This document shows positions 55 to 36,825 of a stretch of 36,857 nucleotides of DNA, one piece after another. The stretch is from IMG/VR virus record IMGVR_UViG_3300006052_000018, positions 1 to 36,857 of that record. The stretch is one strand, 5' to 3'. The stretch comes from a virus. Positions within the stretch are counted from its first letter, which is position 1. Every line of letters starts with the position of its first letter. The position numbers and the translations under genes were made by a program. The notes beneath the pieces were generated by a model. That model made no database searches. It was not told the DNA's origin and saw only the letters and a list, made by a program, of their open reading frames with translations.

Positions 55-1776
55 ATGACGATCCAAGCTTATCAATTTGCTGGTGGATACGGAACTGTAG
101 CAATTCCCAATCCTCCAATTATCTCCCCACGTTCTCCCGCTACCACAGATATTGTATCTCCTGATGGGAACCCTTATCAGATAGGGCAGTACTGGCAAAA
201 TACCCTCACCAACCAAATTTACTTCTATACCGGTGGTGGTTTATGGGATCTAATTGCGGGCGCTGGTGTTGGGCCTATTGATGCTCTTACTGGAAATTCC
301 GGAGGTGCGATTGGGCCTGTAGCTGGAAATATCAATGTGGTGGGCACAGGAACCACAACAGTTGTGGGATCAGGTCACACTTTGACGGTAACACCGACAA
401 GCGGAGGTTTCCCAGTTACTCCTTTCGTTGTTGGACCTGTTGGAGTAGCCGGCTATCAAACCATTCAGTCGGCAGCTACAGCGGCTGGTGCAGCAGGTGG
501 CGGAGTAGTATATATCCAAGGTGGTTCATACACTGAAAACGTTACAATTCCTGCAAATGTATCTTTCATAGGCTCCGATGAAGGAGTATCCATTACAGGA
601 ACTCATACCCCTCCTACTACGTCAGCCAGTTCTTTGACTTTTGATAACATCGTATTCATCTCCGCCACAGATGTCCTTTTCTCTACTGCCGCAGGAACTA
701 CCATTATTAATTTCAATAACTGCTTTTTTATCATCACTAGTGGATATGTGATGAATTTATTGAATTGGACGGGCGAATTGCTGATGGACAATTGCGGAGA
801 AGCCAGTACCAATGATGGTGTAATTAATAACACGGGTGGCTCTGCAATCAAACTGATCAACGTAGAGGTAGGTGCAGGTACTGGCAAGACAATGAATGTC
901 ACTAGTAGTTCTTTCCTCAGAATCGATACATGTAATGTCAATTGTCCCGTCAGTATGAGCGGTTCTGGTTCTTTGATCATTCAGAATGGGGTCAAATTCG
1001 CCAATAATGTTACCATTGGTGGGAGTTTATCCGGATATATCATTCAGACTGTATTTAATACCGGATCAGCTCAAGCCTTAACTTATAATTCTAGTGGTAA
1101 TACATTTCTTACCGATGTTTCTGTCAATTCCAGCAATAACCCTGCTATTGGCGGAACAGGAACAGGAACATTAACTGTTTCTCAAATATCTTTTATAAGC
1201 AATGCTGCTCTAGCTAATACTTTAACTATAGCATATGGATCATCTCTTTTGGGTTCCACGACTGTAGTTGGGACAACAAATGTCAATATCACTGGATCCG
1301 GTGTAAGCACCATAGGAACTGGAGGAACGGGAGCAGTTAATATTGGGAATGCCACAGGAAATACAGCAGTCACTGGATCTCTCACTGCTAGTACCACTCT
1401 AACTGCCACTTCGGGAGCTATCACTACCACTAATGGAAATTTTGTCGCTTCAACAGCTGGGACTGGTTTATTGTTTAATCCTACGACAACTTCAGGAACT
1501 ACAACAGCAACTCTTAATGGTCGATGTGGAAAAATCACTATCACCACCCCAACTATCAATGCCGGAGCGACTTTCACTTTCACGATCACAAATAGTTCTG
1601 TAACTAGTTCATCGACTCAAATTCTTTATGGACTGACGGGAGGGACTACAGGTTCGGCGATCACCATACAGAGTGTAACTAATTCAGCTTCTACATCCGC
1701 AGTCGTAATTCAGAACGCCTCCGCAGTTACAAATAGTACGGGATCTCTTGTCTTAACATTCTTAGTGATCAATTAA
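55..1776 (+). CDS. Tail fibre / tailspike-like beta-helix protein
   Basis: A 573-residue Gly/Ser/Thr/Asn-rich protein with the composition of a trimeric phage fibre. Residues about 78-97 carry a motif of the form LTGxSGGAI..A.NIN that recurs in the protein at 2125. From about residue 134 (YQTIQSA) the sequence has the start of a pectate-lyase-like right-handed beta-helix (VVYIQGGSYTENVTI), followed by many short beta repeats. The last 85 or so residues form a separate non-repetitive domain. The start has a good ribosome site (GAGG, 5 nt before ATG). It is the first of six adjacent fibre genes, so it probably contributes to adsorption, possibly with surface-glycan binding. I see no catalytic residues. 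Fibre class is well supported; exact role is inferred. Confidence 0.8.
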   Translation: MTIQAYQFAGGYGTVAIPNPPIISPRSPATTDIVSPDGNPYQIGQYWQNTLTNQIYFYTGGGLWDLIAGAGVGPIDALTGNSGGAIGPVAGNINVVGTGTTTVVGSGHTLTVTPTSGGFPVTPFVVGPVGVAGYQTIQSAATAAGAAGGGVVYIQGGSYTENVTIPANVSFIGSDEGVSITGTHTPPTTSASSLTFDNIVFISATDVLFSTAAGTTIINFNNCFFIITSGYVMNLLNWTGELLMDNCGEASTNDGVINNTGGSAIKLINVEVGAGTGKTMNVTSSSFLRIDTCNVNCPVSMSGSGSLIIQNGVKFANNVTIGGSLSGYIIQTVFNTGSAQALTYNSSGNTFLTDVSVNSSNNPAIGGTGTGTLTVSQISFISNAALANTLTIAYGSSLLGSTTVVGTTNVNITGSGVSTIGTGGTGAVNIGNATGNTAVTGSLTASTTLTATSGAITTTNGNFVASTAGTGLLFNPTTTSGTTTATLNGRCGKITITTPTINAGATFTFTITNSSVTSSSTQILYGLTGGTTGSAITIQSVTNSASTSAVVIQNASAVTNSTGSLVLTFLVIN

Positions 1777-1789
1777 GGTACTAAAAAAT

Positions 1790-2128
1790 ATGTCCGCAAT
1801 CGCCGTCCGTTTTGATGGATACAGATCTCTAGCATTTGGTTCAATACCAAGTACATATACTGCTCTTGGTACGCCGACAACTCACTTGATGAGGATATTA
1901 AAAATCATCAATAATACAAATGCAGATCTGAATATTTCTTTTGATGGAACAACAAATAATGACTTTGTCCCGGCTAATTCATTTGTTCTGTATGACTTTG
2001 AGACGAACTCATCCACGGATTATGACTTCTTCTTATCGCTCGGTACGCAGCTCTATGTGAATTACAATAGTGGTGCACCTACGTCTGGATCGGTTTACGC
2101 TATCATGATTTATGGGAAGGGTCAATGA
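1790..2128 (+). CDS. Small conserved tail-tip/fibre-associated protein
   Basis: This 112-residue beta-rich protein contains LKIINNTNADLNISFDG and PANSFVLYDFETN. From memory, this pattern is typical of small proteins encoded between fibre genes of podovirus-like phages, where a short beta-sandwich binds or caps fibre subunits. There is no signal peptide or membrane segment. It starts 13 nt after the beta-helix fibre gene, and its stop overlaps the next start (ATGA), which indicates translational coupling inside the fibre operon. A structural or assembly role is inferred from position and composition; I cannot name a characterised homologue. Confidence 0.65.
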   Translation: MSAIAVRFDGYRSLAFGSIPSTYTALGTPTTHLMRILKIINNTNADLNISFDGTTNNDFVPANSFVLYDFETNSSTDYDFFLSLGTQLYVNYNSGAPTSGSVYAIMIYGKGQ

Positions 2129-3342
2129 GTCAGGCTGGAATAACGAATATAAAAGGCGGAGGTGGTGGAGTTGTCTCAACTCTCACCGGGGATTCTGGCG
2201 GAGCAATTCCCCCAACAGCCAATAATATCAATTTATTTGGAACTACCAATCAAATCACAACGACAGGCACTCCAGCTTCTAGTCAGATTGTTTGGAGTTT
2301 GCCTACAACTGTTATTGCTCCAGGCTCTGTAACCACCACTACCTTCCTCACAGCTGATCTTGGAAATATTACGGCTGTTTCTGGAAATTTTGTGATGCCT
2401 TCTACGACGGCTACAGTTGGTCAGCTCGTGCAAAATGGAACTCCATTATTACAGACATATGGGAACGAAAATACTTTTTTGGGTGGTGATGCAGGTAATT
2501 TTACGCTCACTGTCGGCGCCGCTAGTGCAAACATAGGAATTGGCAACAGTTCATTGACTGCACTCACCACAGGTCAGTCCAATGTTGCCATAGGATACTT
2601 GTCAGGCACTTCAATGACAAGTGGTTTCCAGAATGTTGCAATTGGCACCTCTTCGATGTTAGATTTAACCACAGGAAATGCCAATACTGCCGTGGGTTAT
2701 CATTCCATGTTTAGCGGAACTAGTGCAGTTGCCAATACTGCCTATGGATATTCCGCTCTAGATGCACTTCTCACAGGAACTTATAACTGTGCCATCGGAG
2801 AGAATGCGGGAAATAACTATGTAGGTGCTGAATCCAGCAACTTGCTCTTGATGAATGCTGGTGTGGCCAGCGAAAGTAATGTTACACGCATAGGCACCCA
2901 GGGGGCTGGAAATGGCCAACAAAATGAATGCTTCATTGCGGGTATTGTAGGTGTCACAGTATCTAACATTCAATCTGTCGTTATCAATAGTTCTACGGGA
3001 CAACTTGGTGTCAGCAACGGATCTATAGTTTCGTGGTCGGATACTTCTGGAACCGTCAATGCAGCATCCAATAATGGATATTTCATCACCAATACATGCA
3101 CATCAACTCTTCCAGCTGCTCCAAATGAAGGAGATATTGTCTCTTATGTTGTAGACACAACAAATATTCTGACGATTACTGCCAATACGGGGCAAAAAAT
3201 ACGCATAGGCACAACAATCTCCGCTTCCGCGGGAACTGCGGCCAATAATGCGCGCGGAGATTCAATCAACTTGGTTTATCGAACTACTGGAGCTACATGG
3301 TTTAGTGTGGGAGCTCCTGAGGGAACATGGACCGTAACCTAA
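2125..3342 (+). CDS. Tail fibre with YadA-like repeats
   Basis: This 405-residue fibre starts with the LTGDSGGAI..TANNIN motif (residues about 20-36) shared with the first fibre. Residues about 115-225 hold repeats of the type NVAIG-x-SL-x-LTTG-x-N, as in YadA/Hia-type trimeric adhesin heads and many phage fibres. The last 100 or so residues (from VSWSDTSG to GTWTVT) form a domain that reappears at the C-terminus of the protein at 3829. The start overlaps the upstream stop. A trimeric beta-roll shaft with a C-terminal tip or chaperone domain is the likely architecture. The receptor is unknown. Confidence 0.8.
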   Translation: MSQAGITNIKGGGGGVVSTLTGDSGGAIPPTANNINLFGTTNQITTTGTPASSQIVWSLPTTVIAPGSVTTTTFLTADLGNITAVSGNFVMPSTTATVGQLVQNGTPLLQTYGNENTFLGGDAGNFTLTVGAASANIGIGNSSLTALTTGQSNVAIGYLSGTSMTSGFQNVAIGTSSMLDLTTGNANTAVGYHSMFSGTSAVANTAYGYSALDALLTGTYNCAIGENAGNNYVGAESSNLLLMNAGVASESNVTRIGTQGAGNGQQNECFIAGIVGVTVSNIQSVVINSSTGQLGVSNGSIVSWSDTSGTVNAASNNGYFITNTCTSTLPAAPNEGDIVSYVVDTTNILTITANTGQKIRIGTTISASAGTAANNARGDSINLVYRTTGATWFSVGAPEGTWTVT

Positions 3343-3351
3343 GGACTCTTC

Positions 3352-3819
3352 ATGTCACTTACTGCAGTAATCACACAAAATATTTCTGCGCAAACACAAA
3401 ATATTATATTTAGTACATCAGGTCAAGTTGAGGAAATCACCTATAGTAACAATCAGATTACGTATGCAGCCGAATCAAGTTTTGTGCTCTCTCAATCGGA
3501 TTTTTCCCTTTTCGCTGCGTACAAATTGCAGTTCTACAATGCGCTGCTGTCCAATTATCCTAATATCAATACATATTTTAACATAGAGATCCCAGTCTGT
3601 TTGATTGAAATTCAGTCACTGAGTGGACCGAATATCATACAATTTCATCAAACATCCACAGCTTCTCCTGTTTCATTGATTTATAATATTTCTTTTGATA
3701 GAGGAGCATTAACAGCTACATTTGCAGCACAAAGCAATCAAATCACAATTACACTTCAAGAATTTTTACTAGCATATCAAATGTTAAGATCATATTTCAA
3801 TCAATGCCAAATAGCGTAA
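3352..3819 (+). CDS. Hypothetical fibre-operon protein
   Basis: I do not recognise this 155-residue protein. It is rich in Gln, Ser, Asn and Ile, has no signal peptide or membrane helix, and reads as a small soluble beta domain followed by a helical end (EFLLAYQMLRSYF). It sits between two fibres that share a C-terminal domain, 9 nt after one and 9 nt before the other, with a weak Shine-Dalgarno (AGGA). The position suggests a minor fibre component or a fibre chaperone; nothing in the sequence distinguishes these. Confidence 0.6.
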   Translation: MSLTAVITQNISAQTQNIIFSTSGQVEEITYSNNQITYAAESSFVLSQSDFSLFAAYKLQFYNALLSNYPNINTYFNIEIPVCLIEIQSLSGPNIIQFHQTSTASPVSLIYNISFDRGALTATFAAQSNQITITLQEFLLAYQMLRSYFNQCQIA

Positions 3820-3828
3820 AGGTCAATA

Positions 3829-4524
3829 ATGCCAACCCCAGGTAATGCTCTAGATATCACGTCAGCGGGTCTAGTTAAATTTGACGGAACAGCAACTTTT
3901 TCAGGTGTGACTACCACTCAATTTGATGTTTTGGTGGGTGCTGCTTCCAATGGAATTTCCAATATAGCTCCTTCAGCCACCTCTGGTGTTCCTTTAATTT
4001 CACAAGGTAGCTCTTCTAATCCAGCTTTTGGTACAGCTGTAGTGGCGGGAGGTGGTACGGGTAATACTACTTTCACTGCTTACTCTGTCATTTGCGCAGG
4101 AACCACAGCTACAGGAATTTTCCAGAATGTTTCCGGAGTGGGTAGTTCGGGACAAGTTTTAACATCTAATGGTGCTTCAGCTCTTCCTACGTGGCAAAAT
4201 ACAGGATCCTTCGTATGGACAGATGAAGGGACTAATTTTAATGCCTTAGCACAAAATGGATATTTCATTACTGCTACATGTACAGCGACTCTCCCGGCTT
4301 CTCCTTCGCAGGGCAATCAAATTTCTTTTACAATAGATGCAGCTACCACTACGGTTACTATTACGGCTAATACTGGTCAAATAATCAGAATTGGCACCGG
4401 TGTATCTGCTTCAGCTGGAACAGCAGCTAATAATGCCAGAGGTGATTCAGTCACCTTAGTATTTAGATCTAGTGATTCCGCTTGGATAGCTTCTTCAGTC
4501 ATAGGAACTTGGATCGTAACTTAA
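3829..4524 (+). CDS. Short tail fibre sharing the C-terminal tip domain
   Basis: This 231-residue protein has an N-terminal half that is a generic phage-fibre linker (VVAGGGTGNTTFTAYSVIC, then SGQVLTSNG). That pattern is common in tail-fibre proteins of many phages. Residues about 128-231 are clearly paralogous to the last 100 residues of the fibre at 2125, sharing NGYFIT, ITANTGQ.IRIGT, SASAGTAANNARGDS and GTW.VT. A duplicated tip domain on shafts of different length suggests either two receptor-binding fibres or a hetero-oligomeric tip. Start site: AGG, then ATG. Confidence 0.75.
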   Translation: MPTPGNALDITSAGLVKFDGTATFSGVTTTQFDVLVGAASNGISNIAPSATSGVPLISQGSSSNPAFGTAVVAGGGTGNTTFTAYSVICAGTTATGIFQNVSGVGSSGQVLTSNGASALPTWQNTGSFVWTDEGTNFNALAQNGYFITATCTATLPASPSQGNQISFTIDAATTTVTITANTGQIIRIGTGVSASAGTAANNARGDSVTLVFRSSDSAWIASSVIGTWIVT

Positions 4525-4537
4525 ACTCACGAGGAAT

Positions 4538-5275
4538 ATGGTCACACTCAGTAATAGTATAGATAATACAATAGGAGTGAGCCTATCAGGCGCCACTAAC
4601 ACCTTCACAGTGCAAAATCCCAGCAATACTGCATCTTCACAAGCAAAAATTCTGGCTACTGTAGGAGGAACGACTGCAGGAGATGCGTGGACTCAATATA
4701 CGGCTGGAACTTCCCAAAGTTATGCGATAGGATTAAGTAACTCTAATTCTCAATCCTTATATATTTCTACAGCTGCTAGCGGAACCGTATCTCCCAGTAC
4801 TGGGACTGCTTTGGTCACTCTTACGTCTGGAGGAAATCTAAATAAACCTTTGACGAGTGCTTTTAATGCTTACGTAGGCACTACCTTATCCAATGTTACT
4901 GGAGATGGAACCGTTTATACCGTGGTTTTTGGCACAGTTTTGTTTGATCAAAATTCAAACTATAACAACTCTAATGGAGTTTTTACAGCACCTGTTACAG
5001 GAATATATCATTTCTCTTCTGTAATTTTTTTAAATAATATAGTTGCTCAAACCGGCCTTTCATTGTCACTAACTACATCCGTTGCTTCATACATTACAGC
5101 TTACATGAATCCTTCAACAATTATTACAAGTGGATTCTTAGCCGTATCGGCGGATGTCTATACGAAATTAACAGCAGGTCAGGCAGCTCAGATGGAAATA
5201 TCATTGACTGGAAGTACGAAAACTGTAGGTGTGTATGCCCCATACTCTTTTTTCAGTGGTACTCTTGTAGCTTAA
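4538..5275 (+). CDS. Fibre protein with C-terminal C1q-like domain
   Basis: The first half of this 245-residue protein is a repetitive Ser/Thr-rich fibre shaft. Residues about 105-245 match the C1q/TNF-like jelly-roll pattern: AFNAYV, GDGTVYTVVFGTVLFDQNSNYNN, NGVFTAPVTGIYHFS and a closing FFSGTLVA. C1q-like domains trimerise and bind ligands, and occur at the tips of some bacterial and phage fibres. Here the domain would form a third type of receptor-binding head. The ribosome site is GAGGA, 4 nt before ATG. The domain call comes from motif recognition only. It ends the fibre run; the next gene is 66 nt on and encodes an exported protein. Confidence 0.75.
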   Translation: MVTLSNSIDNTIGVSLSGATNTFTVQNPSNTASSQAKILATVGGTTAGDAWTQYTAGTSQSYAIGLSNSNSQSLYISTAASGTVSPSTGTALVTLTSGGNLNKPLTSAFNAYVGTTLSNVTGDGTVYTVVFGTVLFDQNSNYNNSNGVFTAPVTGIYHFSSVIFLNNIVAQTGLSLSLTTSVASYITAYMNPSTIITSGFLAVSADVYTKLTAGQAAQMEISLTGSTKTVGVYAPYSFFSGTLVA

Positions 5276-5341
5276 AAAAACTATTCCACAAAATTCACGA
5301 TTTTCGTATGCTCCAAAGAAAATTTTTCCTAGGAGCGTTTC

Positions 5342-5650
5342 ATGAAAGTTTTTTTCTCTTTTTTTTGTTTGGTTCTTTTTTGCTTCTCACTTGGACATTG
5401 TGTCGATCAGCAAGTCTTTCTGACGAAAAATCAAGTTCTATTGACGAATGAAGGCATCTTCATCGACTATCAAGGTGTCTTAACTCAAGCAAATTCATTA
5501 GAATTTTTAGAAAATAGTTATATTGCCTCGATAAATAATCCTCAAGTTGGTAGAGTGTGTAGAAAGTGCGGCTCAAATATTGGGCCTGACGGAAAATGCG
5601 AAAATGCATCCTGTAGCAACAGCGGACGTAACGGGCCGAGGAAAGAATAG
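5342..5650 (+). CDS. Small secreted zinc-ribbon protein
   Basis: A 102-residue protein with a strongly hydrophobic export signal (residues 1-19, KVFFSFFCLVLFCFSLGH). A short beta motif NEGIFIDYQG (36-45) follows, then a probable zinc ribbon formed by C73, C76, C86 and C91. The same order, GIxID-type strand then a Cys/His cluster, occurs twice in the secreted protein at 15537-16295, so the two are probably related. It has its own strong ribosome site (AGGAG) after a 66-nt gap and precedes an outer-membrane-like gene. It is probably periplasmic or surface-exposed, unlike a virion protein. Function unknown; a host-envelope accessory gene (moron) is my inference. Confidence 0.7.
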   Translation: MKVFFSFFCLVLFCFSLGHCVDQQVFLTKNQVLLTNEGIFIDYQGVLTQANSLEFLENSYIASINNPQVGRVCRKCGSNIGPDGKCENASCSNSGRNGPRKE

Positions 5651-5669
5651 CGAGCCAAGGAAGTGACAT

Positions 5670-6614
5670 TTGAAACAGCTGATTTTTCTATCATTTTTAT
5701 TTCTTTCGTTTTTTGGATTACTTTTTGCTGAAGATACTACTCCTATATGCCTCAAAGGAGATGTACGCTTCAAAGCAAAAGTGGAGAAAGATAAAAAAGT
5801 TTCTGCTCAACTGAAATCAGAAGCTAATGCTTGTTTCAAATATTCCATGGAAAATTCATGGCTCGATTCGAAGATAAAGTTAAGTTTACCTCTGGAAAAA
5901 TTCTATGATCATAGCGTACAACTGGAAATTGAACGACTGATCATAGGTTTTTCTCTTTTAGATGATGAAGCATTGTCCCTTGAAATTGGTAGAAGGAAGT
6001 TCGAAGATCTTTTCGAATCCAAAGTTCAGTTTAAGAGCTATTATAATGGCATCCATTTATCCCATTCTCACGCCATGAATTTAGGTCGTTTCTTTGTTCA
6101 TGGCGGCCCTCATTTTGTGAACGCTGCAGAAAACTTTTATGGATTCATTGCTGAATGTGGCATGAAAAAAATTTTAGATTCCAATGCGACATTAAAATAT
6201 TCCATTATTGACTGGAATTCTTCAAGCTCTCAACAAAAAGATTTAAACTTTTTAGTATCTCAGATGACTCTGGGATATGAGATTCCAAGAGTCATGTTAT
6301 CGACCGGAAATTTTGCCATGTTCTCCGATAAGGTTCTTCTGTATGCGGCTGTATTAAAAAATCATCATCAGTGTCATGATTCCTATGGATTTTACACAGG
6401 AGCTTGCTTTGGAAAGATCGAGCAAGCAAAAGACTTGATGATCGATGTAAATTATCAATATCTGAATTCACAATGCATGCCAGAATTCGATAGAACGGGT
6501 GTAGAGAAAGGATTTCAGATCAAGGCCGTCTATGCCTTACTCGACAATTTCGACGTTCAGGCGAAGCTTACAACTAGCAAATCGGGCGAGCTTTCTGCTA
6601 TTTATAAGTGGTAA
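5670..6614 (+). CDS. Probable outer-membrane beta-barrel protein
   Basis: This 314-residue protein begins at TTG (AAGGA about 8 nt upstream) with a typical signal peptide (KQLIFLSFLFLSFFGLLFA, cleavage near residue 20). The mature part alternates polar and hydrophobic residues. It ends in Trp with alternating hydrophobics before it (LSAIYKW), the usual recognition end of BAM-inserted barrels. Motifs such as EIGRRKFEDLFESKVQF, HGG and KYSIIDW remind me of an outer-membrane-like family in Parachlamydia-type chlamydiae, but I could not check this. Phage-borne barrels can replace or mask a receptor, as with the Lc porin of phage PA-2. Its place after the fibre genes fits that. It is convergent with the recombination operon. 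Confidence 0.7.
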   Translation: MKQLIFLSFLFLSFFGLLFAEDTTPICLKGDVRFKAKVEKDKKVSAQLKSEANACFKYSMENSWLDSKIKLSLPLEKFYDHSVQLEIERLIIGFSLLDDEALSLEIGRRKFEDLFESKVQFKSYYNGIHLSHSHAMNLGRFFVHGGPHFVNAAENFYGFIAECGMKKILDSNATLKYSIIDWNSSSSQQKDLNFLVSQMTLGYEIPRVMLSTGNFAMFSDKVLLYAAVLKNHHQCHDSYGFYTGACFGKIEQAKDLMIDVNYQYLNSQCMPEFDRTGVEKGFQIKAVYALLDNFDVQAKLTTSKSGELSAIYKW

Positions 6615-6830: not shown

Positions 6831-6873
6831 AAACTCTCCTACAGAGCAACTAATGTAGCAAATCACATCTTAT

Positions 6874-7725
6874 TTAGGAAGATGTGATTTTCCAAAATTC
6901 TGTGGGTTTTTTACGATAAACTTCTAGGTTAACTTCTTTCAATTCGGGAATGGATGTATAATCTATGTTGCCCTTACGAATGAAACGAGAAACCTTTACC
7001 CCTGAACCCATCGAGTTCTTGTTATTGCTCATTGCAATCAATGACTTTCTCAGTGCCTCTTCTTTTTGTTCTAGTATTCTAAGTTGTTCATTTATTTTGG
7101 TCCATTCTATCGCTTGGCAAGCCCACGCTTCATCCGTTTTAACTTCAAAATCTCTTGCCGTCATCTTCGGTGGCATGAATTCTTGCAGACATTGCCAAAA
7201 AGCTTGCTCCTTTTCAAGCATTTTCTTTATATACTTGTCATCCCTGTAAACTTTTACAATGGCACCCGATGATCCGTCGAAAGAAAAATAGTAAGACATA
7301 TCCAATTCACACACTTCGAGCTGATGTTGTAGTTGAGGAAAGTACTTCTCGGGGATCTGTCCATGTAAAGCTTTCTGATGATCCACTGCTCCAGGACATT
7401 TTATCTCAGCTATATGTTTCGACTCCGCATCGATACCGTCTAAGGAAGCGATCATCCAGGAAAAAGAAGTATGTTGCTTTATTCGAGGTAAAAAAAATAT
7501 CCCCGTCATCTTCTCCAATTCCAGACGGGCTGACTCTTCTAGATCAAGACCCCTTCTCATGCTGGATGATTCAGCTCTTTTGGGCGCTAAATCGTTCTTC
7601 TCTTCCCAAAGTTGGTAGGGTGTTTTCCACGGGGAGACTTCCATGATGACCGGGGCGTCACTTGCCCCGATCTTGTTTTTACGCATTTGCAGCCACTCAG
7701 GCGTGTTTTGTTGCATGTTATCCAT
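6874..7725 (-). CDS. YqaJ-like (lambda Exo type) recombination exonuclease
   Basis: A 283-residue member of the YqaJ viral recombinase / lambda exonuclease fold (PD-(D/E)XK). Visible motifs: NTPEWLQMRKNKIGASDAP (7-25), RGLDLEESA (58-66), SLDGID with catalytic D96, the AEIKCPG motif with E107 and K109, and PQLQHQLEV (130-138). Such enzymes resect dsDNA 5' to 3' and hand the single strand to an annealing or binding protein. The start is set at ATG 7725 because GAGG lies 6 nt upstream and ATGGATAA overlaps the stop of the ssDNA-binding gene, implying coupled translation. An upstream in-frame TTG (7737) is less likely. All key residues are present. Confidence 0.9.
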   Translation of the reverse strand: MDNMQQNTPEWLQMRKNKIGASDAPVIMEVSPWKTPYQLWEEKNDLAPKRAESSSMRRGLDLEESARLELEKMTGIFFLPRIKQHTSFSWMIASLDGIDAESKHIAEIKCPGAVDHQKALHGQIPEKYFPQLQHQLEVCELDMSYYFSFDGSSGAIVKVYRDDKYIKKMLEKEQAFWQCLQEFMPPKMTARDFEVKTDEAWACQAIEWTKINEQLRILEQKEEALRKSLIAMSNNKNSMGSGVKVSRFIRKGNIDYTSIPELKEVNLEVYRKKPTEFWKITSS

Positions 7726-8524: not shown

Positions 8525-8532
8525 ATTGGCTC

Positions 8533-8850
8533 CTATGAATTTTTTAGTTCTTGTAAGTGTGTTTGGTTGATTTGTAAAAGTTCTTGTAAAAGAGCACCTT
8601 CTGCTTTTGGCATTGGGACAACTTTTGTTTGAGATGGGTCGCATTTGATTGCGAGACTGGTACTAGGAATCTTAAGACCCACTAAGTGGGCAGTTTCCTC
8701 AAGAGATCTCTCCAGGTCTGCAATATCGAAATATTCTGGATCGTAAAGATGCTTTAACACATCTTTGAGCCAGTATTTTATATTGACTAGCTGCTCGGAT
8801 TGCTCCTCACATACGTAACAAGTGGGTTCTAAGTATGGTTCATCGTACAT
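8533..8850 (-). CDS. Hypothetical protein, first gene of leftward operon
   Basis: I do not recognise this 105-residue acidic protein. It has a single Cys pair (CYVC, near residue 12) and two predicted helical stretches (EQLVNIKYWLKDVLKHLY and DIADLERSLEETAHLVGL). There is no signal peptide. It starts at ATG 8850 with AGAG upstream and lies 8 nt before the ssDNA-binding gene, so it is transcribed first from the leftward promoter near 8957-8985. A role in early recombination or replication is inferred from position only. Confidence 0.6.
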   Translation of the reverse strand: MYDEPYLEPTCYVCEEQSEQLVNIKYWLKDVLKHLYDPEYFDIADLERSLEETAHLVGLKIPSTSLAIKCDPSQTKVVPMPKAEGALLQELLQINQTHLQELKNS

Positions 8851-9075: not shown

Positions 9076-9111
9076 GGAGGAATATGGATATAAGGAGGAA
9101 TATGGATATAA
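9076..9111 (+). repeat. 18-bp tandem duplication of ribosome site plus start
   Basis: GGAGGAATATGGATATAA occurs twice in direct succession (9076-9093 and 9094-9111). Each copy has a full Shine-Dalgarno and an ATG. The period is six codons, so both starts are in the same frame. Confidence 0.9.
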
Positions 9112-9356
9112 GACAATATTTAGAAGAAAATAAATTGACTCTCGGATGGGTAGCGCATCACGTGCAATATTCTCTTGGACATATACAACAAATAGTCGCA
9201 GGAACTAGAAGACCTGGAAAAAGACTCATTCGGGATATAAAAAAACTAACCAATGGTATGGTGATGACGGCGGATGATATATGTTCTCCACGCAAGAAGA
9301 AAGAAAAAGTTGGGTGTGTTGAATCCGATGTGAAAAATTCCTCGGATCAAGTATAG
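9084..9356 (+). CDS. HTH (XRE/Cro-like) transcriptional regulator
   Basis: 90 residues from ATG 9084, or 84 from the equally good ATG at 9102; both have GGAGG. Residues about 10-52 (QYLEENKLTLGWVAHHVQYS... then HIQQIVAGTRRPGKRLIRDIKKL) fit the five-helix XRE/lambda-repressor-like fold, with the recognition helix near SLGHIQQIVAG. The C-terminus is basic (PRKKKEK), then acidic. It is divergent from the recombination operon, and a palindrome lies between them, so it probably acts as a Cro-type switch on 8957-9064. With no integrase seen, it need not be a lysogeny repressor. Confidence 0.7.
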   Translation: MDIRRNMDIRQYLEENKLTLGWVAHHVQYSLGHIQQIVAGTRRPGKRLIRDIKKLTNGMVMTADDICSPRKKKEKVGCVESDVKNSSDQV

Positions 9357-15536: not shown

Positions 15537-16295
15537 CTAAACATATGCTTGTCCAAATTTCCAACCTTCTCTACCTTTTATGATCGTATGAGGGCACATT
15601 TTGTATTGCTTATTTGGGTTGAACCATCTGTGACATCGGGTGCATTTTGGGTTTAAGGATTTTTCAGCTTCCTGCTTATTTATATAAATTCCCTTTTCAT
15701 CGATAAATATATGATTTATAGCCCCAAGTTTACCTTCTACTTGTATTAATATACAATGGGACCCGGAAGTAGGATCAATTTTTGGGCTAGAATACGCTAA
15801 ACCAATGACAGTTGGATGGATATATATACGATCATCGACAATCTTGTAAGAAAAATCTTCTTCTTCTTTTCTATCTATTGACCAACCATTTAAAATATAA
15901 GTATTCGTATTCATTCCCTGTGGCGTTTCTTTTAAAATCGGCCAGTGAGGACAATGAGGGGAATTGTTATTGGCATCATAGAGTTGGTTACATCTGGAAC
16001 ATTTCTCCCATCTTGTATACGTTGAAAAAAAATCATTTGCATCCGTATATATTCCATTTATATCCACAAAGAGATGATTTACATGGCCAATCTTATCATC
16101 GATCATAAGGAAAATAGCATGAGGATTTTCTGAACATGGTTCTTTTGTAGAACCAAACAGAATACAAGCCGGACTCACATATAATCGATCGCCGTCTATT
16201 CTATAGGAAAAATCGGTAGATGCCTCACTTGCTTTTGCGGTGACGCAAAAAGATAGACAAAAGGAAAGGAATAAAAGTAAAAATTTGAATTTCAT
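15537..16295 (-). CDS. Secreted protein with two zinc-ribbon repeats
   Basis: 252 residues with a clear signal peptide (KFKFLLLFLSFCLSFCVTAKA, cleavage near 22). Two copies of a module of about 90 residues follow (28-118 and 148-236). Each has FSY[RK]I, a beta region, G-x-[VI]NH[IL]F[IV]D, GIY, and a Cys cluster: C99, C102, C115, H117 and C218, C221, C234, H236. Each cluster fits a structural zinc site. The smaller protein at 5342 has a shortened version of the same order. The gene ends the leftward accessory operon and is convergent with the terminase. Probably periplasmic or extracellular; no enzymatic motif. A host-interaction gene is my inference. Confidence 0.7.
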   Translation of the reverse strand: MKFKFLLLFLSFCLSFCVTAKASEASTDFSYRIDGDRLYVSPACILFGSTKEPCSENPHAIFLMIDDKIGHVNHLFVDINGIYTDANDFFSTYTRWEKCSRCNQLYDANNNSPHCPHWPILKETPQGMNTNTYILNGWSIDRKEEEDFSYKIVDDRIYIHPTVIGLAYSSPKIDPTSGSHCILIQVEGKLGAINHIFIDEKGIYINKQEAEKSLNPKCTRCHRWFNPNKQYKMCPHTIIKGREGWKFGQAYV

Positions 16296-17070: not shown

Positions 17071-17202
17071 TCCACGCATTCTTCTCCCAAGCCATTTTCG
17101 ATAATTTCCTTCAAAACATTCGCACTGCTTTCTCTTCTTTCGATAGCAGTATTTGCATTTGTAGCCTTTCCGTATGTGATCTTTTTTACTCACGGATTTC
17201 AT
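17062..17202 (-). CDS. Tiny basic zinc-finger protein (46 aa)
   Basis: A 46-residue frame (MKSVSKKDHIRKGYKCKYC...) begins with an ATGA overlap on the stop of the phosphoesterase gene. It has four closely spaced Cys residues (KCKYCYRKKRKQCEC) in a very basic context, typical of a nucleic-acid-binding zinc knuckle. The ribosome site is poor, so expression would depend on coupling. No family recognised. Confidence 0.45.
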   Translation of the reverse strand: MKSVSKKDHIRKGYKCKYCYRKKRKQCECFEGNYRKWLGRRMRGMN

Positions 17203-17954: not shown

Positions 17955-18164
17955 TCATTTGTTTTCATCTTTATTTGGAAAGTTAATATCTATCCAATTT
18001 GTTATAAAATCCAACATTTCTCTCAGAGTTGGGTTACCTGTCAGAAGTTGTTTTTTACGACAATCTTTTAGAAAATCCAGTAACATGGACTTAAGCTCGT
18101 AATGACAATATAGATCGGAAAGCTCCGTTTGGTTTGAATCGTCTTCATATTTTTTCGTCTCCAA
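17955..18164 (-). CDS. Hypothetical acidic protein (69 aa)
   Basis: 69 residues from a TTG start at 18164 with a strong GAGGTGG just upstream, overlapping the HTH gene by 20 nt. Helical and acidic (YELKSMLLDFLKDCRKKQLL, LREMLDFITNWIDINF). No family recognised. It ends directly before the phosphoesterase start. Confidence 0.5.
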   Translation of the reverse strand: METKKYEDDSNQTELSDLYCHYELKSMLLDFLKDCRKKQLLTGNPTLREMLDFITNWIDINFPNKDENK

Positions 18165-18399
18165 TCACCCACCTCTCGCGTTTCTTTCCAGTGATATTCT
18201 CAATGATCGATTCTTTTAAGATAACCCAGCGTCTATCCGAAATCTGTATTGCTTCTATCTCTCCACTGTGCACAGCTCTCCATACAGAAGATTTGCTACC
18301 ATAAATACCCATTTTCACTAATTCAGTAGGCGTAAAGAAGTTCTTGGGACCCATGAGACGGAGAAGATTAGCAATAAAATCGATTTCATCTGAAGTCAT
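18145..18399 (-). CDS. HTH protein, excisionase/MerR-like (HTH_17 type)
   Basis: 84 residues from ATG 18399, which shares its A with the TAA of the upstream frame (TAATG). Residues about 22-65 (FFTPTELVKMGIYGSKSSVWRAVHSGEIEAIQISDRRWVILKESI) match the winged HTH of excisionases and related DNA-binding proteins: helix, turn, recognition helix, then the wing with IxxRRWVI. It may regulate its operon from the inverted repeats at 18750-18818. No integrase is present, so a true excisionase role is unlikely. Confidence 0.7.
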   Translation of the reverse strand: MTSDEIDFIANLLRLMGPKNFFTPTELVKMGIYGSKSSVWRAVHSGEIEAIQISDRRWVILKESIIENITGKKRERWVIGDEKI

Positions 18400-18748
18400 T
18401 AGTCTTTCCAATTCCAATGCAATTTTGTGTGATCTTCGGAAAAATATTTTCCATCTTGTTTGAAGTGTCTTACGTATTTTCCCAAAAAATCTACTTTTCC
18501 TTCTCGCTCGACCCTCCAGATAGCCCCTTCTACTGGTTCCAATGCTCCATGATAGCCATAAGTTTCTCCATCGTGTTTATCTAAAAGTTTTTCAATAGTT
18601 ATACCAACTTATATACGGTTATATCTGGTTTTTGGTATAACTCATGAAAGCCGCAGATCTGAGTTCCAACATTTCGAGTGTCTATTTTACTGCCTAGATA
18701 GTCAGGAAAGACCGAACTTGTGAAGTCCAGAATTTCCATAATTTTCAT
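18399..18748 (-). pseudogene. Frameshifted, truncated RNA-ligase-like gene
   Basis: Two frames abut. ATG 18748 opens 49 codons (MKIMEILDFTSSVFPDYLG... PDITVYKLV) ending at TAA 18599. Directly after, in another frame, comes GITIEKLLDKHDGETYGYHG... EPVEGAIWRVEREGKVDFLGKYVR..., which has no start codon and ends at 18399. The EGAIWRVER-x-GKVDFLGKYVR segment is the pattern of the lysine-containing C-terminal motifs of phage RNA/DNA-ligase-family nucleotidyltransferases. One inserted base near 18608 would join them into about 115 residues. Even then the N-terminal lysine-adenylation motif (KxDG) is absent. Likely a decayed gene; a sequencing error could account for the shift but not the missing domain. 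Confidence 0.5.
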
Positions 18749-18975: not shown

Positions 18976-19215
18976 ATGGTTAGTTCAACACAAAAAATTA
19001 ACTGGGATTCGATTATTTCTCTAGGAGTTGTTATGGCAACCATCATTGGTAGCACTGTTCCGTTGTATATTCACTCCACGAATCAAACAGAAAATTTGAG
19101 ACAATCTATGGAAGCTAATGCGCGCGCCATACATGAAGAAATTCACGCAATCCATGAGGAGATGAAAGATTTTCACGGACGCTTATGCGCAATAGAAGAA
19201 AGAAATAGAAAATAA
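18976..19215 (+). CDS. Array member 1: membrane/coiled-coil mini-protein (79 aa)
   Basis: First of a tandem paralogous family. One hydrophobic helix (about 13-33, ISLGVVMATIIGSTVPLYI) is followed by a charged helix with heptad character, ending in the family signature MKDFHGRLCAIEERNRK. There is no cleavable signal; the helix is probably a membrane anchor. GGAG lies 6 nt before ATG. A relative-looking spacer with the sequence AAATAACCGCAAGG lies both before this gene and after it. Function unknown; see the array finding. Confidence 0.75.
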   Translation: MVSSTQKINWDSIISLGVVMATIIGSTVPLYIHSTNQTENLRQSMEANARAIHEEIHAIHEEMKDFHGRLCAIEERNRK

Positions 19216-19232
19216 CCGCAAGGAGGAAATTT

Positions 19233-19421
19233 ATGGATTGGACGCAATTTTCCATTTTCATGATATCCAATATAGTTTTTACTTTAACATTGTGGCTATG
19301 GAGTCGAGCTGAATCCAATGCTGATCATCGGGAAATGATGAATCTTATAAGAGAAATGAAAGATGAAATGAAAGATTTCCATGGTCGTCTCTGTGCTATT
19401 GAAGAGAGGAATAGAAAGTGA
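19233..19421 (+). CDS. Array member 2: membrane/coiled-coil mini-protein (62 aa)
   Basis: MDWTQFSIFMISNIVFTLTL opens a membrane helix (about 5-24). SRAESNADHREMMNLIREM follows, then the same signature tail as member 1, MKDFHGRLCAIEERNRK (17 of 17 residues identical). The DNA of the tails has diverged at synonymous sites, so the protein sequence is being conserved. Strong AGGAGG, 6 nt before ATG. The last bases (GTGA) overlap the next start. Confidence 0.75.
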   Translation: MDWTQFSIFMISNIVFTLTLWLWSRAESNADHREMMNLIREMKDEMKDFHGRLCAIEERNRK

Positions 19422-19669
19422 TAAAACTTAATGATTTTGAACGTGAAATAGATGAATTCACAGTTGAATTCATGCAGTTCGTGGAAGAAAAGGATATAAG
19501 TATGCCTATAGTCATAGCGTCTATGGTCCGAGTTTTTGTTGCTTTCAATCTCATTAATGATGTTTCGATATCTGAATTTGAAGATGGACTGAATAGATTA
19601 TTGAAAGATTATAAGCGAAGAAAAATGGAGTCTGAAAATTGGAATATTTCACATGAAGAAACCAATTAA
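19418..19669 (+). CDS. Hypothetical acidic protein inside the array (83 aa)
   Basis: A GTG start overlaps the preceding stop (GTGA). The 83-residue product is soluble and acidic (IKLNDFEREIDEFTVEFMQFVEEKD) and lacks the array signature. Its last residues, NWNISHEETN, are echoed by YWSISHEKTN at the end of the mini-ORF at 20190, showing that this segment was copied within the array. Function unknown. Confidence 0.5.
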   Translation: MIKLNDFEREIDEFTVEFMQFVEEKDISMPIVIASMVRVFVAFNLINDVSISEFEDGLNRLLKDYKRRKMESENWNISHEETN

Positions 19670-19700
19670 TTCTAACATGTGTGGCGGATATAAAATTTAA
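19653..19700 (+). pseudogene. Truncated copy of array member at 20260
   Basis: Fifteen codons (MKKPINSNMCGGYKI) start within the end of the previous gene in another frame. The full-length gene at 20260 starts MKRQINSKINYEKI, also overlapping a paralogous SHExTN-coding end. The DNA around both starts is clearly duplicated (TTTCACATGAA...AATTAATTCTAA). Here the frame closes early, so this is a relic. Confidence 0.45.
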
Positions 19701-19743
19701 TCATGGTAAAAGTCAGGTGGATGCAAAAAATGAGTAATAAAAA

Positions 19744-19974
19744 ATGATAACACAATCAGCAGACATCGGATTAATAATAGCAATCACAGGAAGTGCAATA
19801 GCAATTGTAGGCACAGTACTCGCTATGATGTTTTGGGTAAGACAGGAAGCTAATTCTTTACGCAATGAAGCTAAAGAAGATAGGAAAGATATCCTCAATC
19901 TGATAAGATCTATTGAGTTAGAAATGAGGGATTTCCATTACAAACTAGTGGAGATTGAGAAAAACAAAAAATAG
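19744..19974 (+). CDS. Array member 3: membrane/coiled-coil mini-protein (76 aa)
   Basis: One membrane helix (about 8-31, IGLIIAITGSAIAIVGTVLAMMFWV), then EANSLRNEAKEDRKDILNLI and a divergent signature tail MRDFHYKLVEIEKNKK. The start overlaps the stop of a 14-codon mini-ORF (19703-19747, MVKVRWMQKMSNKK) that carries the better ribosome site, suggesting translation by reinitiation. Confidence 0.7.
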   Translation: MITQSADIGLIIAITGSAIAIVGTVLAMMFWVRQEANSLRNEAKEDRKDILNLIRSIELEMRDFHYKLVEIEKNKK

Positions 19975-19985
19975 CAGGGGTTAAT

Positions 19986-20180
19986 ATGGAGTGGACACAA
20001 TTTACGATATTTTTCTTAGGCGTATTTGGATTATTCATATGGAATCGTACTGAATCAAGAAACGATATTCGCCATATGGATAATAAAATTGATATCAACA
20101 GACAATTAATGCATTCTATACATGATGAAATGAAAGATTTTCATTTCAGATTATTAGAAATCGAAAGAAATAGGAGATAA
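19986..20180 (+). CDS. Array member 4: membrane/coiled-coil mini-protein (64 aa)
   Basis: MEWTQFTIFFLGVFGLFIW mirrors the MDWTQFSIF opening of member 2. A charged helix follows and the tail is MKDFHFRLLEIERNRR. A single short membrane helix spans about residues 5-19. AGGGG precedes ATG. Clear paralogue of members 1-3. Confidence 0.75.
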   Translation: MEWTQFTIFFLGVFGLFIWNRTESRNDIRHMDNKIDINRQLMHSIHDEMKDFHFRLLEIERNRR

Positions 20181-34489: not shown

Positions 34490-34705
34490 TTAATGCCTGA
34501 ATTCTGGTTTGGGCATATTTTTTGATGTCTCACTCACGCCTTGCTCTTGATCACGATGCACTGCCATTTCGGTATCTGGATATTTAAATCCTCGAATTTC
34601 TCCAGCTCTTGGCAATTTTTTGTGATGAGGCATTTCTGGAAAATAACCATCGGAATCAACTTCACCACGGTTCATATCCATTTTTCTCTCGCTCATTGGC
34701 TTCAT
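34490..34705 (-). CDS. Small hydrophilic protein after portal (71 aa)
   Basis: 71 residues, charged and without hydrophobic segments (SERKMDMNRGEVDSDGYFPEMPHHKKLPRAGEIRGFKYPDTEMAVH). It starts in an ATGA overlap with the portal stop, so it is translated with it. Function unknown; probably minor virion or assembly component. Confidence 0.6.
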   Translation of the reverse strand: MKPMSERKMDMNRGEVDSDGYFPEMPHHKKLPRAGEIRGFKYPDTEMAVHRDQEQGVSETSKNMPKPEFRH

Positions 34706-36825
34706 AGTAGTGCACTCCTTACTTGTGACTCATTCCCCATTTTATTCTGTGGGCTATTATTATTCATCATATTTGTTAAAAAATTATTTGATTCCGATTG
34801 AATCTTTGCAGAGATTTTTTCGCGATTTTCCCTGTCTTCTTGCATTAAAGCTTGGCTCTGAAGTTCAACAAGTTTTTGTCTGGCGTCGAATTCCCCATAG
34901 GCTTGGTAAGTTTCAAGCAGTTTTTGTAGCGCTTCCATCTTGTCTTTGAGAGCTAGAGCATCATTTCGGCTAATTTCTGATATTCTTTCTTCAAATAAAC
35001 CAATGTTAGCTTCTGCTCTTCCGTGACGTTCGCGGGCTGTTGCAAGTTCACTAGCGGATTTGGCTTGTAGATTCTGGAGTTGTGCTTCCAATAGAGTATG
35101 TTTGAGCATCATCTCTTGTTTCTGCATCTCAGCAGCTTCCATTTGTGTTTGTTCAATGGCAGCAATGATCTCGTTTTTACCTTGAATAGTAGCATTTTCC
35201 AAAAGGAATTTTGGAGGAATAATACCTCCCAGAATCTGATTGAGATCGAGCATTTGCTTAAATTGCATCTGTTGTTGGATGGTTGTATCTAAACCTTCTG
35301 AGACAAGAACATCATATTTTGAGAATGTCTTTGTGAGAAACTCAGGATTAGGCTCTTTGCCAAGGATGCGAGCAATTTTCGCAGGAGACCAATTATTTTG
35401 AATGATCTTCTGTTCCAGTCTTCCAAAAAGTTTTAAAGCCACATCCCACTGATCGAAGTATTTTTGAAGAGTAACAAGTCCTGCTCCCTGTCTTAACATT
35501 ACCTCGATTCCGGTCTTGGAATCGTCAGCCATTCCCAAAAGTTCTTGGTTGACTCCCGATGTGCGGAAAATAAAATCAGCAAGCTGATCAGCGAGCTGCA
35601 TATCGCTGGGAGGAACCGCATTAGGAATAATCTTTTGAATATCAGTGAGCTCAAATCCTTCCTTAATGATGATGTCTTTTCCTTGGCCACCATAGCGTAG
35701 ATCTTCCTCATTGACGATAGAATTTTCTTTGCGCATCCATCCGGAATTGATTGAACTCTCTGATATATCGTGGTTTAAAATTATACGACGATTAAGAAGA
35801 AATTGCGAATCGCGCATAGCTCGAGTTAAAGAACGTACTCTTAGATCATATTGAGCTACATGTGCATCATAATTCCAGTAGATGGGAACCAGAGGACACT
35901 CATCAAAATGTAATGGATTATAATTTAAGTACATCATGTGTTCGTTGATGACTACTGCAAGCTTCCATGTGGGAGTAGGAACTTCGATTACTTCAAACAT
36001 TCCAGTGCGATTCACTAACTCATCCAAGAATTGCTGATTATCCACGTAATCGTAGGCGATGCCATCATTGCGATTATAGAGCATCTTCTTCATGCGCTTA
36101 CTTTTGTACCAGACGTGACTCAGTACAAGCAGATCATTACGAGCAAGATTGTAGTTCTCAGGAAGGAAATAGAATTTTCCATAGCGATTACCATAACCCG
36201 ACATTGTACGAATGAGATCTTCTTTATCTGGAAAATAGTTAATCGCTTCTTGTTTAGAGAGATATTGTTGACACCAGATGAAATTACAATCGCTCATATC
36301 GGGTTCCCTAAAATAGGGATCAATCATGAAAGAATTGTAAGACCATACTTTTGCATCCAAAGTGCCATTGATTGGGTCATCAGTAAAATCCAAGTAAGGC
36401 TGTAATAACACCATGCCCGCAATGGCAGATTGTTCATATGCTTGAGACACCTTTTCCAAAATGTTTCTATAATTATTGGCATAAGTAACTACCTTGGTGA
36501 GATCATCTGCGTAATCTTGTTTTGAATTCTCTAAAGGGGTGAAATTGATAGATTTACGATGTTGTCTTTGGTAACCCGTCACCATATTGATGGGTTGTTG
36601 AATCAAATTAAAATGGAAAGTCTGAAAATTATATTGAGGATAGAAATTGAAATATGAATTGATGAAGCGCTGTTCGCCTGCATAGAATAAGGTGTCTATA
36701 TTTGACTGATTCCATCTCGCCTGTTCTAAAGGCTCAAACTTCCCATACAGATTATCCAGCCAAATCTTAATATTTGATTCGCTTGGCTCAGTGTCGGTAT
36801 CCCATGGGGGAAAATACATCGGCAT
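34702..36825 (-). CDS. Portal protein, P22-like
   Basis: 707 residues, close to the P22 portal length (725). The N-terminal stretch (QARWNQSNIDTLFYAGEQRF, then FNLIQQPINMVTGYQRQHRKSINFTPLE) and the core (AIAGMVLLQPYLDFTDDPINGTLDAKVWSYNSFMIDPYFREPDMSDCNFI) fit podovirus portals. The last 170 residues are a long helical, Gln/Glu/Ala-rich barrel (MEAAEMQKQEMMLKHTLLEAQLQNLQAKSASELATARER). The dodecamer forms the DNA channel for packaging and ejection. ATG 36825 is the first start after an in-frame stop, with only 32 nt left to the window end. Those 32 nt contain a repeated GATGCCTA and a poor ribosome site. Confidence 0.82.
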   Translation of the reverse strand: MPMYFPPWDTDTEPSESNIKIWLDNLYGKFEPLEQARWNQSNIDTLFYAGEQRFINSYFNFYPQYNFQTFHFNLIQQPINMVTGYQRQHRKSINFTPLENSKQDYADDLTKVVTYANNYRNILEKVSQAYEQSAIAGMVLLQPYLDFTDDPINGTLDAKVWSYNSFMIDPYFREPDMSDCNFIWCQQYLSKQEAINYFPDKEDLIRTMSGYGNRYGKFYFLPENYNLARNDLLVLSHVWYKSKRMKKMLYNRNDGIAYDYVDNQQFLDELVNRTGMFEVIEVPTPTWKLAVVINEHMMYLNYNPLHFDECPLVPIYWNYDAHVAQYDLRVRSLTRAMRDSQFLLNRRIILNHDISESSINSGWMRKENSIVNEEDLRYGGQGKDIIIKEGFELTDIQKIIPNAVPPSDMQLADQLADFIFRTSGVNQELLGMADDSKTGIEVMLRQGAGLVTLQKYFDQWDVALKLFGRLEQKIIQNNWSPAKIARILGKEPNPEFLTKTFSKYDVLVSEGLDTTIQQQMQFKQMLDLNQILGGIIPPKFLLENATIQGKNEIIAAIEQTQMEAAEMQKQEMMLKHTLLEAQLQNLQAKSASELATARERHGRAEANIGLFEERISEISRNDALALKDKMEALQKLLETYQAYGEFDARQKLVELQSQALMQEDRENREKISAKIQSESNNFLTNMMNNNSPQNKMGNESQVRSALL

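What the first reader, a model, noticed from the sequence alone, without database searches (positions are those of the whole stretch)
5342..6614. Exported zinc-ribbon plus outer-membrane barrel cassette; possible chlamydial host
Two genes with signal peptides follow the fibre genes. The second ends in the aromatic, alternating pattern of a BAM substrate. Its motifs (IGRRKFEDLFESKVQF, HGG, KYSIIDW) match my memory of a protein family in Parachlamydia-like chlamydiae. A phage-borne outer-membrane protein beside receptor-binding genes suggests receptor replacement or superinfection exclusion. The chlamydiaphages I know of are small ssDNA microviruses, so a tailed phage of this group would be notable.
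Basis: partly seen in the sequence, partly recalled or inferred. Interest (0 to 1): 0.75.

Follow-up and report, generated by a model that had tools for sequence, protein, structure and literature searches.

The report
Outer-membrane porin in chlamydia-linked tailed phages
A tailed virus of bacteria carries, right after its host-recognition fibre genes, two exported proteins, one of them a membrane-channel porin, and several of its genes and those of its relatives match plasmids of amoeba-dwelling chlamydiae, which suggests a little-known group of viruses that infect chlamydiae and alter their outer surface.

Summary
The two genes are real. 5342-5650 (+) is an exported zinc-ribbon protein. 5670-6614 (+, TTG start) is an outer-membrane barrel. 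AlphaFold2 gives 16 strands plus a signal helix; it matches OmpM1 (Z 23.8) and OmpF/OmpC (Z about 20). Seven relatives, all in IMG/VR phages of one podovirus clade, show a conserved segment at the porin L3 (constriction-loop) position. The barrel follows the fibre genes, same strand, in 8 of 8; the zinc-ribbon/barrel pair recurs in two other phages.

Chlamydial host: no cellular barrel homologue was found, so the remembered Parachlamydia family is unconfirmed. Independent evidence does point to Chlamydiota. A Simkania plasmid holds an HTH/small-protein/Bet block like the clade's early region; Bet is the top plasmid hit for a barrel phage's RecT (54%; 220 bits, next 119). The zinc-ribbon family matches ORFs on Simkania and Protochlamydia plasmids but not controls. 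Relatives carry U-box and F-box genes.

Most likely: a late-expressed porin placed in a chlamydial outer membrane to remodel the infected cell's surface (superinfection exclusion by receptor replacement). Fold firm, host likely, function inferred.

The parts
5342..5650 (+). Exported zinc-ribbon protein (102 aa): signal peptide, short beta-rich domain (GIF-x-x-QG), CxxC/CxxxxC ribbon
   Evidence: relatives in L087 and L084, G012 and G045; chlamydial plasmid homologues
5670..6614 (+). 16-stranded porin-fold outer-membrane barrel (314 aa, TTG start, signal peptide about residues 1-22, C-terminal W)
   Evidence: family of 8
6000..6038 (+). Codons for residues 111-123, at the porin L3 (constriction loop) position between strands 5 and 6; most conserved stretch of the family, constant length 13
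   Evidence: mean pairwise identity 0.59 against 0.37 in strands and 0.18 in other outer loops
55..5275 (+). Tail-fibre/tailspike gene array upstream on the same strand; the last gene (4538-5275) ends in a C1q-like head
   Evidence: PF00386 E 4.5e-9; phrog_4636 tail spike
15537..16295 (-). Second exported protein (252 aa) with two copies of the same domain plus CxxC ribbon
   Evidence: matches pPNK 74346-74690, E 1.5e-4
9084..9356 (+). Small HTH regulator (cluster C21); the family matches HTH genes on Simkania and Protochlamydia plasmids
   Evidence: window member found by a model built without it, E 1.1e-17
18145..18417 (-). Small HTH-like protein matching the Waddlia plasmid pWc
   Evidence: E 1.1e-6
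18976..20180 (+). Four small membrane/coiled-coil proteins of cluster C22 (18976, 19233, 19744, 19986), a family with a member on the Simkania plasmid beside the HTH gene
34702..36825 (-). P22-like portal protein, the marker that defines the phage clade
   Evidence: PF16510 E 2e-64; 320 IMG/VR relatives

Best explanation
The window is a podovirus-like tailed phage of a clade linked to environmental Chlamydiota. At the end of its fibre (late) gene array it carries a cassette of an exported zinc-ribbon protein and a 16-stranded porin. The porin is exported by its signal peptide and should be inserted into the outer membrane of the infected chlamydia by the BAM machinery. There it most likely remodels the infected cell's surface: it adds or substitutes an outer-membrane channel so that the porin-type receptor used by this and related phages is diluted or displaced (superinfection exclusion), while permeability is kept, as the conserved L3 implies. 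Shown by computation: export signals, porin fold, conserved L3 position, fibre-linked position, recurrence in 8 phages. Well supported: chlamydial host. Inferred: late expression, membrane insertion, and the exclusion role. By estimate: fold about 0.95, chlamydial host about 0.85, exclusion as the main role about 0.4.
For: Fold. Family and conserved L3. Position: downstream of and co-directional with the fibres in 8 of 8; no promoter-like site in 5275-5342; signal-peptide-like ORFs concentrate within three ORFs of fibre genes, 18 of 56 against 145 of 1156 ORFs overall, P 6.6e-5, and 11 of 48, P 0.02, without the barrel family (home-made rule). Host: RecT of barrel phage G001 hits Simkania pSn Bet at 54%, first of 28 plasmid records, 220 bits against 119 for the next. 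The HTH of barrel phage G031 has pSn as its only hit (1 record) in 72,556 plasmids at E <= 0.01. A small G001 protein has pSn as best hit, E 0.01, next 2. Models of the HTH, C22 and zinc-ribbon families hit chlamydial plasmids (E 7e-19, 1e-7, 1e-5) and not 360 kb of controls (best 0.036, none, 0.37). Three of the window's 63 ORFs match chlamydial plasmids at E <= 0.01 and no control. U-box over cut-off in 2 and F-box over cut-off in 3 of 50 relatives, 0 of 14 control genomes. Phage F-box protein matches a Protochlamydia plasmid F-box protein, E 1e-10.
Against: No barrel homologue in 84,980 species genomes (pattern-limited) or on the chlamydial plasmids. ParA of relative G013 is closest to Spirosoma, Deinococcus and Cardinium; the window's RecE to Cupriavidus; the terminase to Streptomyces phages; the replication protein of G041 to an E. 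coli plasmid, Protochlamydia lower. The number of phage gene clusters whose best hit is a chlamydial plasmid (13) against control plasmids (6), for 281 against 200 kb, is not significant by itself. F-box and U-box proteins also occur in Legionella and Amoebophilus (PMC4209131). Exclusion itself is untested, and a conserved L3 fits a plain nutrient channel just as well.
Confidence: 0.5

Rival explanations
1. The porin is a working channel that raises nutrient and nucleotide-precursor uptake, or repairs permeability, of the chlamydial cell during infection; exclusion is incidental.
For: L3 is the most conserved part while the other outer loops are short and variable, as expected if conduction is selected. 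A relative carries a queuosine-precursor transporter at the same fibre-adjacent place (G012).
Against: Strict linkage to fibre genes is not needed for a nutrient role, and most relatives lack it: 45 of 50 records had no match (several are fragments).
Confidence: 0.3
2. The cassette is a lysogenic-conversion or transduction cargo: surface genes like the clade's U-box and F-box genes, moved between chlamydiae and useful to the bacterium inside its eukaryotic host.
For: Zinc-ribbon homologues live on chlamydial plasmids. Relatives carry U-box and F-box genes, and one sits directly beside a barrel (L083).
Against: No integrase was recognised in the window's own gene list (not exhaustively tested). 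The barrel is found only in phages so far.
Confidence: 0.2
3. The phages infect another intracellular or amoeba-associated bacterium (Legionellales, Rickettsiales, Dependentiae, Amoebophilus), and the chlamydial plasmid matches come from shared mobile-element traffic.
For: Mixed best hits for ParA and RecE. Tetranucleotide usage of 3 of 22 phages is closest to a Megaera plasmid. F-box proteins are not unique to chlamydiae (PMC4209131).
Against: Three adjacent early-region genes and the zinc-ribbon family match Simkania and Protochlamydia plasmids, against Legionella, Cardinium, Megaera and Bealeia controls.
Confidence: 0.15
4. The barrel is a virion or lysis component (for example an outer-membrane disrupting protein) rather than a porin serving the infected cell.
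For: It lies with late structural genes. No endolysin name appeared among the families shown for 90 representative proteins (only 25 families shown in each).
Against: Signal peptide, full 16-strand porin architecture and conserved L3 position.
Confidence: 0.05

Closest known systems
OmpM1 of Veillonella parvula (PDB 8bys/8bym/8byt), outer-membrane attachment porin
   Same: Porin barrel aligns over 266-269 residues, Z 23.5-23.8, 2.9-3.0 A
   Different: 14-15% identity; the aligned part of OmpM1 starts at residue 110-113, after its N-terminal attachment part (recalled: SLH domain and stalk), which the phage protein lacks
General porins OmpF/OmpC/OmpK36 family
   Same: 16 strands, end-to-end alignment, Z about 20; a conserved segment at the L3 position
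   Different: 10-14% identity; no Pfam porin match for the window protein; short outer loops; 4-8 cysteines in the mature protein, whereas enterobacterial porins have none (recalled)
Lambdoid phage porins Lc (phage PA-2) and NmpC (recalled, not tested here)
   Same: A porin gene carried by a tailed phage; PA-2 Lc is the textbook case of receptor replacement
   Different: No sequence link shown; different phage type and host; no exported zinc-ribbon partner known to me
PagP-like outer-membrane protein of Burkholderia phage BcepIL02 (ACR15015)
   Same: An outer-membrane protein gene in a podovirus with a distantly related portal
   Different: In the replication region, not beside fibres; PagP is a small enzyme-type barrel (recalled), not a porin
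Exported zinc-ribbon ORFs of chlamydial plasmids: PNK_RS12560 (pPNK 74346-74690) and an unannotated ORF at pSn about 116141-116452
   Same: Leader-like start, GIF/GIY domain and cysteine ribbon; HMM E 1.1e-5 and 1.2e-5
   Different: Plasmid-borne, no barrel homologue on these plasmids; function unknown
Phage-derived gene group on plasmids of Protochlamydia massiliensis and Criblamydia sequanensis (PMC7846284, passages)
   Same: Tailed-phage genes in Chlamydiota
   Different: Terminase and tail tip protein L; its relation to this clade could not be tested

Membership tests
16-stranded outer-membrane porin | Sec signal peptide | tested here: met
   Hydrophobic leader ending ...LLFAED; all 8 members pass a simple signal rule; helix 2-18 in the model. 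No SignalP available.
16-stranded outer-membrane porin | 16 antiparallel strands closing a barrel, matched end to end to solved porins | tested here: met
   16 strands; OmpM1 Z 23.8, 3.0 A over 269; OmpF/OmpC Z about 20
16-stranded outer-membrane porin | C-terminal aromatic residue of BAM substrates | tested here: met
   8 of 8 members end in W
16-stranded outer-membrane porin | Loop L3 (strands 5-6) folded inward as constriction | tested here: inconclusive
16-stranded outer-membrane porin | Trimer and ion conductance | not testable with these tools
   needs experiment
Pfam/NCBIfam porin sequence families | Match over curated cut-off | tested here: not met
   0 families for the window protein; weak Porin_4 E 0.14 in one relative
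Chlamydial MOMP (Pfam Chlam_OMP PF01308) | Match to the family model | tested here: not met
   0 of 1, but no control genome rang either; the Pfam scan of the protein gave none
   No relative among 23 and 94 pattern stretches in 84,980 genomes; the scans require near-exact short motifs
Phage of Chlamydiota | Shared genes with chlamydial replicons beyond controls | tested here: met
Phage of Chlamydiota | Prophage, spacer or physical link to a chlamydial cell | not tested
Lc/NmpC-type receptor-replacement porin | Blocks adsorption of phages using the host porin | not testable with these tools
   needs experiment

The most novel reading that the evidence does not exclude
A widespread clade of tailed podoviruses infects environmental chlamydiae. 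It carries, in its fibre region, a modular slot of exported surface proteins (16-stranded porin, zinc-ribbon proteins, small lipoproteins) and elsewhere eukaryote-acting U-box and F-box proteins, so that these phages both alter the chlamydial envelope against rival phages and spread effector genes among symbionts of amoebae, with chlamydial plasmids holding relics of the same phages.
Probability: 0.55. Interest if true: 0.85.

Novelty: new variant of a known kind. Interest (0 to 1): 0.68.

Why it matters
A podovirus clade tied to Chlamydiota, with a porin beside its receptor-binding genes, would make phage pressure on the chlamydial envelope directly testable, give lead genes for phage-host work in obligate intracellular bacteria, and offer a route by which ubiquitin-system genes spread among amoeba symbionts.

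Tried and rejected
Barrel searches that found nothing: single-sequence scans of viral contigs and genome contigs, alignment scan of genome contigs, plasmids, phages (one chance-level hit, E 4), PDB sequences, Pfam, PHROGs and NCBIfam. The single-sequence viral scan also missed all seven phage relatives found later, so its emptiness, and that, means little.

A second viral scan with the larger alignment returned the same seven contigs. A zinc-ribbon scan returned two contigs, both already known.

Queuosine transporter, ParA, RecE and a replication protein as host markers: mixed or generic hits; rejected as evidence either way. The U-box protein of G013 had no plasmid match. PF01308 in the window: no hit, and no control rang.

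Endolysin absence as a sign of a host without a normal wall: 90 of 129 representative proteins were scanned and no lysozyme-like name was among the 25 families shown in each of two searches, but 18 and 132 more families were not shown; inconclusive.

Tetranucleotide usage: best correlation with a chlamydial plasmid segment in 19 of 22 phages, but with five chlamydial against four control segments and small margins; an uncorrected first run favoured Simkania in 8 of 8 and is discounted for sample size. Two-hydrophobic-segment (Inc-like) small proteins were seen often but not counted against a control. The zinc-ribbon model is weak (pLDDT 69) and was not searched. A control comparison of hydrophobic proteins with named podophages was dropped because of their higher G+C (recalled, not computed); those records served as controls.

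Literature: searches listed no paper that describes, by its title or abstract start, a tailed dsDNA phage isolated from chlamydiae; PMC5654357 (passages) lists a 19.3-kb predicted prophage region in a Parachlamydia draft genome.

Full report
WHAT IS THERE. The window is a 36,857-base IMG/VR virus record. It has a P22-like portal (PF16510 E 2e-64), a terminase, a RecE-type exonuclease and a fibre array. Gene order and content match a large clade: 320 portal relatives in IMG/VR, 80 kept. Named phages are only about 22% identical at the portal, so the clade has no close relative among the 50,697 phage records. The two genes of the finding lie at the end of the fibre array: 5342-5650 and 5670-6614. 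They face the convergent RecE region, and no promoter-like site lies in the gap in front of them.

THE BARREL FAMILY. A search of 50 related phage records found the barrel in 5; an alignment scan of the viral collection added two more. The family now has 8 members at 28-40% identity to the window protein. All end in W, and all have 4-8 cysteines in the mature part. The AlphaFold2 model (pLDDT 80, pTM 0.73) has a signal helix and 16 strands. Foldseek ranks OmpM1 first, then OmpK36, OmpU, OmpF and OmpC; VIA-align gives Z 23.8 for OmpM1 (3.0 A over 269 residues) and about 20 for OmpF/OmpC. With a periplasmic N terminus, residues 111-123 fall between strands 5 and 6, the place of loop L3 that narrows the pore in general porins. 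This stretch, [FLM][ED]xxF[DEN]SKxQF, keeps a length of exactly 13 in all 8 and is the best conserved: mean pairwise identity 0.59, against 0.37 in strands, 0.18 in other outer loops and 0.14 in periplasmic turns; the top five of 280 windows of 13 residues start at 109-116. I take this as a sign of a working channel. Inward folding of L3 could not be checked.

POSITION. In 8 of 8 phages the barrel is downstream of the fibre genes and on the same strand. The exported zinc-ribbon gene precedes it in three (window, L084/G037, L087/G051) and stands without the barrel in two more (G012, G045, 32 records searched). With a home-made signal-peptide rule, signal-bearing ORFs are enriched within three ORFs of a fibre gene: 18 of 56, against 145 of 1156 ORFs overall (P 6.6e-5); without the barrel family 11 of 48 (P 0.02). 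The 22 genomes were chosen partly because they carry the barrel, so no prevalence should be read from them; the less biased figure is 5 of 50, several of those records being fragments.

HOST. Other evidence was then sought. (1) The Simkania negevensis plasmid pSn carries, at 6836-8615, a C22-like small protein, an HTH gene, and, divergent from them, Bet. RecT of barrel phage G001 is 54% identical to this Bet: first of 28 plasmid records, 220 bits, next 119. The HTH of barrel phage G031 finds only pSn among 72,556 plasmids. A small G001 protein (cluster C29, same region of pSn) finds pSn best, E 0.01, next 2. (2) Models of the HTH, C22 and zinc-ribbon families were run against 281 kb of chlamydial plasmids and 360 kb of controls (Legionella, Cardinium, Megaera and Bealeia plasmids and four podophages): HTH 7e-19 on pSn and 1e-12 on pPNK, control 0.036; C22 1e-7 on pSn, none in controls; zinc-ribbon 1.1e-5 on pPNK and 1.2e-5 on pSn, control 0.37; barrel none. 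The pPNK zinc-ribbon protein (PNK_RS12560) starts with a leader and ends in a CxxC ribbon; the pSn ORF is not in the plasmid gene table. (3) Of the window's own 63 ORFs, three match chlamydial plasmids at E <= 0.01 and no control: 5342 (pPNK 6.4e-4, pSn 0.0098), 15537 (pPNK 1.5e-4) and 18145 (Waddlia pWc 1.1e-6); three others (RecE, the replication gene at 10051, portal) match controls only. (4) Relatives carry eukaryote-type ubiquitin domains: U-box over cut-off in 2 of 50 (G013, G016) and F-box over cut-off in 3 of 50 (G014, G017, G042, the last on a 57-residue frame), 0 of 14 control genomes. The G013 U-box gene sits beside a barrel. The F-box protein of G014 aligns with a Protochlamydia plasmid F-box protein (E 1e-10). 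Such domains are greatly expanded in Parachlamydiaceae, but also occur in Amoebophilus and Legionella (PMC4209131, passages).

AGAINST. ParA, RecE, terminase and a replication protein point elsewhere or nowhere. The plain count of phage gene clusters with a best hit on chlamydial (13) against control (6) plasmids is not significant for 281 against 200 kb (counted by eye from its table). Plasmid matches show gene exchange, not infection. The chlamydial chromosomes could not be searched by profile here. Tetranucleotide usage is only weakly in favour.

MECHANISM. Export, BAM-type insertion and a channel follow from established knowledge of porins. The link to receptor-binding genes, the patchy presence and the other exported proteins at the same place suggest surface modification of the infected cell. 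The best known precedent is the Lc porin of phage PA-2, recalled here and not tested. Nutrient uptake is the main rival, since the conserved L3 speaks for conduction. The zinc-ribbon partner may be a periplasmic or surface protein; its role is unknown, and its presence on chlamydial plasmids suggests a chlamydial family that phages share.

NOVELTY. Phage-borne porins exist: BFVD lists 'OmpC' and OprO/P-like phage proteins among the matches, and lambdoid porins are known (recalled). Phage-derived genes on chlamydial plasmids are reported (PMC7846284, passages). New here are a porin family confined so far to this podovirus clade, its fixed place beside the fibres with an exported zinc-ribbon partner, and the evidence tying the clade to Chlamydiota. 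The paper searches listed no described tailed phage isolated from chlamydiae.

Noticed in passing
L101:691-1599 (G013), L127:14083-14949 (G016), L120:5175-6128 (G002): Phage proteins with a glycine-zipper hydrophobic segment followed by a U-box (Pfam hits in the first two; the third aligns with them but has no Pfam hit), a eukaryote-type ubiquitin-ligase domain in tailed phages.
   Followed up: partly
L129:18554-19696 (G014), L126:5822-6244 (G017), L118:1082-1666 (G003, weak): Phage F-box proteins. The G014 one starts with two close hydrophobic segments, like an inclusion-membrane protein, and aligns with an F-box protein on the Protochlamydia naegleriophila plasmid.
   Followed up: partly
window 16588-16914 and 17056-17286; L099:18138-18777; L115:11652-12369: Small proteins with two close hydrophobic segments, resembling chlamydial Inc proteins (recalled resemblance). 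Not counted against a control.
   Followed up: no
window 18976-20180: Four neighbouring copies of one family of small membrane/coiled-coil proteins (C22), present in 10 of 22 genomes.
   Followed up: partly
L113:18835-19551 (G012): Queuosine-precursor transporter (TIGR00697) soon after the fibre genes, in the place where other phages carry the barrel.
   Followed up: partly
L127:13202-13957 (G016); L132:1491-1997 (G041): Further exported proteins ending in patterns like outer-membrane barrels, unrelated to the porin family by BLAST clustering.
   Followed up: no
L135:3448-3612 (G019), L137:8792-8986 (G029), L129:16627-16821 (G014): Small lipoprotein or signal-bearing proteins (cluster C66) next to the fibre genes in phages that lack the barrel.
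   Followed up: no
window 4538-5275: Last fibre protein ends in a C1q-like domain (PF00386, E 4.5e-9).
   Followed up: no
L162:46141-46452 (pSn about 116141-116452): ORF on the Simkania plasmid, absent from the plasmid gene table, that belongs to the exported zinc-ribbon family.
   Followed up: yes
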